A model generated the notes under the pieces. The model was not told the DNA's origin, made no database searches, and was given only the letters and a program-made list of their open reading frames with translations. DNA of 5,923 bases from an uncultured Eubacteriales bacterium (GTDB lineage: Bacteria; Bacillota; Clostridia; Oscillospirales; Oscillospiraceae), in the NCBI GenBank assembly GCA_900549495.1, contig UROL01000124.1, positions 1-5,923 of the forward strand, in the 5' to 3' direction. Positions 5,875-5,923 of this stretch are shown here, piece after piece (the first letter of the stretch is position 1; every line of letters starts with the position of its first letter). Both the position numbers and the translations under genes were made by a program.

Positions 5875-5923
5875 CTGTCTCTTATACACATCTCCGAGCC
5901 CACGAGACCGAGGCTGATCTCGT
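5875..5923 (+). other. Untrimmed Illumina Nextera adapter (not genomic)
   Basis: Positions 5875-5893 are the 19-base Tn5 mosaic end, CTGTCTCTTATACACATCT. Positions 5894-5908 are CCGAGCCCACGAGAC of the read-2 side adapter. CGAGGCTG (5909-5916) fits the 8-base i7 index slot and matches index N710 as I remember the list, and ATCTCGT (5917-5923) begins the P7 sequence. The order is that of a read running through a short insert. The bases should be removed before annotation. Confidence 0.98.

What the first reader, a model, noticed from the sequence alone, without database searches (positions are those of the whole stretch)
5875..5923. Contig ends in a Nextera adapter including a sample index
Mosaic end, read-2 adapter, an 8-base index and the first P7 bases follow one another without a mismatch. 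The assembler extended the contig through untrimmed reads, so the last 49 bases are synthetic. Other contigs of the same assembly probably carry the same tail, and joins made through it would be false.
Basis: partly seen in the sequence, partly recalled or inferred. Interest (0 to 1): 0.7.

Follow-up and report, generated by a model that had tools for sequence, protein, structure and literature searches.

The report
Leftover sequencing adapter ends this contig
The last 49 bases of this contig are a Nextera sequencing adapter with its sample index, not the bacterium's DNA; most likely untrimmed reads carried them in, and they cut a proline–tRNA ligase gene short and give it a false stop codon.

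Summary
Window 5875-5893 is the Tn5 mosaic end, 5894-5908 the Nextera read-2 stem, 5909-5916 the index CGAGGCTG (N710) and 5917-5923 the start of P7. With any index, 123 of 124 matches in viral contigs lie within 71 bases of a contig end; the exception, L191, is a likely false join. The gene at the junction, proS, agrees with its closest relative at 334 of 336 residues and diverges from residue 337; 116 of 120 listed relatives are 478 aa long. The window's own assembly is not held, so its other contig ends and raw reads could not be examined. Interest is low.

The parts
5875..5893 (+). Tn5 mosaic end (19 bases), the inner part of the Nextera adapter
   Evidence: Exact match, 0 of 200 shuffles; same 19 bases printed as ME in PMC10037646 and PMC2229646 (passages)
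5894..5908 (+). Nextera read-2 stem CCGAGCCCACGAGAC
   Evidence: the 34-base ME+stem is printed as a sequence to trim in PMC6122167, PMC6460022 and PMC12590682 (passages)
5909..5916 (+). 8-base i7 sample index CGAGGCTG (N710)
   Evidence: listed with primer N710-A in PMC7589761 (passage)
5917..5923 (+). first 7 bases of the P7 side (ATCTCGT)
   Evidence: complement of the P7 primer end printed beside the index in PMC7589761; 72 of 124 viral matches read on through all 17 further P7 bases
4868..5874 (+). genuine 5' part of proS (proline--tRNA ligase), cut off by the adapter
   Evidence: TIGR00408 455.2 bits, cut-off 437, for 335 aa; identical to P0001 at 334 of the first 336 residues
5875..5917 (+). 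adapter-coded false C-terminus of the proS ORF (CLLYTSPSPRDRG after the shared Cys-336) and false stop TGA at 5915-5917
   Evidence: ORF list; stop bases read; 0 of 120 listed homologues carry the adapter peptide
5623..5889 (-). spurious minus-strand ORF that starts inside the adapter (MYKRQ...)
   Evidence: mechanical ORF only

Best explanation
Bases 5875-5923 are Nextera library adapter (mosaic end, read-2 stem, N710 index, start of P7), and they most likely entered the contig when short inserts were sequenced through into untrimmed adapter that the assembler then treated as genome. In detail: tagmentation would have cut the template inside proS after base 5874, the read ran through the short insert into the adapter, the adapter was not trimmed, and the contig was extended into it (inferred). 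The contig likely ends there because adapter k-mers are shared by many inserts of the library and form a branching hub (inferred, not tested). In frame with proS the adapter codes CLLYTSPSPRDRG, and the last two index bases plus the first P7 base make TGA, so a gene that lacks about 142 codons looks complete (the frame and stop are shown by the sequence; the missing length is inferred from 478-aa relatives).
For: Exact four-part adapter order. All 121 matches lie within 3 bases of a contig end: 86 flush, 25, 8 and 2 with 1, 2 and 3 further bases, all of them P7 bases. The 121 genomic flanks all differ in their last 20 bases. In viral contigs 12 different indices fill the index slot and 123 of 124 matches are within 71 bases of a contig end. 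Junction flanks of both sets fit the recalled Tn5 target consensus best in the true register: mean 3.46 and 3.93 of 8, against 2.34 to 3.27 in 19 shifted registers. P0001 (478 aa, longest contig 68 kb) agrees at 334 of 336 residues, then differs at 12 of the next 13.
Against: The window's own junction flank does not fit the Tn5 target consensus (2 of 8, mean over the window 2.66), which is weak since single sites vary. In the genome set the true register leads narrowly (3.46, next 3.27). No raw reads or sister contigs of this assembly are held. No intact DNA of the same strain was found, so continuation of proS rests on proteins of relatives.
Confidence: 0.99

Rival explanations
1. A natural Tn5/IS50-type transposon end inserted in proS.
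For: The first 19 bases are a Tn5 transposase recognition end.
Against: The mosaic end is a laboratory hybrid of the two natural ends (recalled). What follows is the read-2 stem, a listed index and P7 bases, not transposon. None of the 6 window proteins scanned is a transposase.
Confidence: 0.003
2. A real engineered insertion, for example from a mosaic-end transposon mutant library, present in the sequenced DNA.
For: Such libraries carry the same mosaic end (established knowledge).
Against: They would not carry an i7 index and P7 at a contig's last bases. The same 49-mer ends contigs of uncultured organisms of other taxa.
Confidence: 0.002
3. Chance resemblance of genomic sequence to an adapter.
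For: None.
Against: 0 of 200 shuffles match even 19 bases with 3 mismatches; the reversed-pattern control gave 0 in 10 of 10 genomes.
Confidence: 0.0001
4. A true biological truncation of proS with a new C-terminus.
For: The ORF is formally closed at 349 aa.
Against: The new C-terminus is the adapter's translation. 0 of 120 listed homologues have it; 116 of 120 are 478 aa and the shortest is 429 aa. The cut falls inside the anticodon-binding domain and the C-terminal domain is missing.
Confidence: 0.0005

Closest known systems
Illumina Nextera / Nextera XT i7-side adapter (mosaic end + read-2 stem + i7 index + P7)
   Same: All 49 bases, in order, without a mismatch; index equals N710
   Different: Stops after 7 P7 bases, where the contig ends
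Adapter-tailed contigs in public MAGs (e.g. L001, L002, L077)
   Same: The identical 49-mer at the contig end, flush in 86 of 121
   Different: Other organisms and runs; none of the 10 MAG titles is Oscillospiraceae
IMG/VR viral contigs with Nextera tails
   Same: Same stem and P7 start at contig ends in 123 of 124 matches
   Different: Index CGAGGCTG in 1 of 124 only; 72 of 124 run through the rest of P7

Membership tests
Nextera i7-side adapter read-through | 19-base Tn5 mosaic end | tested here: met
   Exact at 5875-5893
Nextera i7-side adapter read-through | Read-2 stem directly after the mosaic end | tested here: met
   5894-5908; sequence as in PMC6122167 (passage)
Nextera i7-side adapter read-through | 8-base index from the kit's list | tested here: met
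   CGAGGCTG = N710 in PMC7589761 (passage); that N710 is in the Nextera set is recalled
Nextera i7-side adapter read-through | P7 follows the index | tested here: met
   First 7 bases only, contig ends there
Nextera i7-side adapter read-through | Lies at a contig end | tested here: met
Ends at the window's last base; same in 121 of 121 fetched genome matches.
Nextera i7-side adapter read-through | Same tail in sister contigs and raw reads | not testable with these tools
   No genome held for the window
Nextera i7-side adapter read-through | Tn5 target preference at the junction | tested here: inconclusive
   Seen in the two sets of 121 and 124 junctions, not in the window's own flank (2 of 8)
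Natural Tn5/IS50 insertion | Transposon body or transposase next to the end | tested here: not met
   Index and P7 bases follow instead; no transposase among the 6 window proteins scanned
ProS (proline--tRNA ligase, TIGR00408) | Family score above cut-off | tested here: met
   455.2 vs 437 bits on 335 aa
ProS (proline--tRNA ligase, TIGR00408) | Complete anticodon-binding and C-terminal domains | tested here: not met
   PF03129 matched over 1-44 of 94 only, PF09180 absent; P0001 has both. The loss is put down to the artefact

The most novel reading that the evidence does not exclude
Nextera read-through is a recurrent maker of false complete genes: the frame used here runs open through mosaic end and stem (CLLYTSPSPRD) and is then often stopped by what follows, so truncated proteins enter databases with one shared false C-terminus.
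Probability: 0.6. Interest if true: 0.2.

Novelty: not a real feature. Interest (0 to 1): 0.06.

Why it matters
It matters for data hygiene, not for biology. The last 49 bases and the 349-aa proS protein should be left out of any analysis. The same tail is found in public MAGs and in some phage and plasmid records; here it closes a truncated gene falsely, and in L191 a tail of the same kind likely joins two sequences that do not belong together.

Tried and rejected
Natural transposon end, engineered insertion, chance and true truncation were considered and rejected (see rivals). A family search in one genome, made in the hope of a handle from which to reach Clostridia, gave none. Paper searches for adapter-coded peptides returned 0 papers. 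Searches for adapter contamination of assemblies found 1, 0, 1, 87 (10 listed), 7 and 29 (15 listed) papers; no title in these listings has this artefact as its subject, but I read passages of three of them only (PMC6791352, PMC6460022, PMC6122167) plus PMC12590682 from the same listing, so this is no claim that none exists. The Tn5 target test supports the class of junction but not this single junction. A graph test of why tails end near 49 bases was thought of and not run. The relatedness of the two flanks in L191 was not tested.

Full report
What is there. The window ends in 49 bases that split exactly into four library parts: the Tn5 mosaic end at 5875-5893, the read-2 stem at 5894-5908, the index CGAGGCTG at 5909-5916 and ATCTCGT, the start of the P7 side, at 5917-5923. 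The mosaic end is the only match in the window even with 3 mismatches, and 0 of 200 shuffles give one. The 34-base mosaic end plus stem is printed as an adapter to trim from Nextera XT libraries in PMC6122167 (passage) and as a trimming sequence in PMC6460022 and PMC12590682 (passages); 33 of its bases are the iNext read-2 stub in PMC6791352 (passage). CGAGGCTG is the index of primer N710-A in PMC7589761, beside the P7 end (passage); that primer's 3' end is of TruSeq type, and that N710 belongs to the Nextera set is recalled. The window's other end has no adapter: no second mosaic end up to 3 mismatches, i5 stem at best 4 of 14 off.

Where else it occurs. The stretches hold 121 matches (L048 has one at each end). 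All 121 lie within 3 bases of an end: 86 flush, 25 with one further base, 8 with two and 2 with three, and the extra bases are those of P7. That these are contig ends, not cuts made by the tool, was checked for the 31 loci of 8000 bases (all minus strand, at base 1 on) and for the 23 loci that start inside a contig (all plus strand at the contig's last bases); the other 66 are whole contigs by the listing. The pattern itself demands 49 bases, so shorter tails were not counted here. In 10 of 10 of these MAGs the 34-base stem occurs 19 to 935 times, and its reversed control 0 times; they were found because they carry the tail.

Any index. In viral contigs the pattern with a free index again stopped at the limit: 120 stretches, 124 matches, 12 different indices, CGAGGCTG in 1 (L176). 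As far as I recall all 12 are in the N7xx list; the passage shows 7 of the 12. 123 of 124 lie within 71 bases of a contig end. Whether its two flanks are related was not tested.

Tagmentation signature. If the tails are Tn5 read-through, the genomic bases before them should show Tn5's target preference (consensus A-GNTYWRANC-T, recalled; the string is not in the two Tn5 papers looked into). In the true register the mean agreement is 3.46 of 8 in 121 genome flanks and 3.93 of 8 in 124 viral flanks; in 19 shifted registers it ranges from 2.36 to 3.27 and from 2.34 to 3.12. The lead is clear in the viral set and narrow in the genome set. The strongest single columns are G at -9 (genome set, chi-square p 1.9e-8) and C at -1 (viral set, p 4.2e-8); in the genome set -1 alone is not significant (p 0.39), and some columns outside the 9 bases (-10, -11, -13, -14) also depart in both sets. 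The window's own flank agrees at 2 of 8 only, against a window mean of 2.66; on weight matrices from the two sets it ranks at 54% and 14% among junctions and at 81% and 63% among all window positions. This one junction adds nothing either way.

What the tail does to the gene. proS starts at 4868; its first 335 codons score 455.2 bits against TIGR00408, cut-off 437. The closest protein, P0001 (478 aa, longest contig 68 kb), differs at residues 4 and 39, agrees through Cys-336 and differs at 12 of the 13 residues 337-349. Base 5875 (C) can serve both as third base of the Cys codon and as first base of the mosaic end, so on protein evidence alone the boundary is open by one base; the 19-base mosaic end puts it at 5874/5875. 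Of the 120 homologues listed (7997 were scored), none carries the adapter peptide; 115 share one residue with the window after MGWK, 1 shares none and 4 lack MGWK; 116 are 478 aa, the others 549, 467, 466 and 429. The window protein keeps 44 of 94 positions of the anticodon-binding domain and lacks the C-terminal domain that P0001 has. Relatives at 88-89% identity that bear names are called Oscillospiraceae bacterium and Faecousia sp., so the host is likely of that family.

The false stop. In this frame the adapter reads CLLYTSPSPRD, then the index gives RG and, with the first P7 base, TGA at 5915-5917. A gene caller would therefore likely report a complete 349-aa protein; none was run. Of the 245 junctions in hand (121 and 124), 151 had no stop-free frame of at least 100 codons running into the tail and 94 had one, taking the longest; in this frame 26 of 32 met a stop after the junction, in the other two 6 of 28 and 3 of 34. 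This is a mechanical frame count, not gene prediction, and any sequence after the tail counts too.

Published records. The 49-mer, index included, is also found in full inside records of two phages deposited as complete: vB_EcoM_G4507 (MK327946.1 76711-76759, and its copy NC_054919.1), where it lies between and partly in two CDSs that bear the same product name, and SaPL (MH973725.1 6658-6706), inside a hypothetical protein; in both the P7 side continues for 17 more bases. In all, 41 of 50,697 phage records and 9 of 72,556 plasmid records match the 49 bases in part or whole; part matches may carry other indices.

Verdict. Observation confirmed, interpretation supported, artefact ordinary. Inferred and not shown: that short inserts were the route, that trimming was omitted, and why the contig stops after 49 adapter bases.

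Noticed in passing
window 265-373 (+): TPP riboswitch (RF00059, 72 bits) upstream of a ThiT-like thiamine transporter gene at 446-994 (PF09515 over its cut-off, NCBIfam ThiT below its cut-off); ordinary.
   Followed up: partly
window 1039-1479 (-): SpoVAC gene (TIGR02838, 181.7 bits, cut-off 164), which suggests a spore former or a relative of one.
   Followed up: partly
window 3449-4657 (-): Single-chain L-serine ammonia-lyase (TIGR00720, over cut-off) with a LysR-type regulator gene downstream at 2556-3446.
   Followed up: partly
window 1801-2511 (+): VTT-domain membrane protein (PF09335); no NCBIfam match.
   Followed up: partly
L191 6346-6394: Interior Nextera adapter with index TAGGCATG, full P7 and a run of A in a 121,820-base viral contig: a likely false join.
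   Followed up: partly
L245 301-349 (MK327946.1 76711-76759): The same 49-mer inside a phage genome deposited as complete; the two CDSs beside it bear the same product name, baseplate hub subunit and tail lysozyme.
   Followed up: partly
L246 301-349 (MH973725.1 6658-6706): The same 49-mer inside an annotated hypothetical protein of Pseudomonas phage SaPL.
   Followed up: partly
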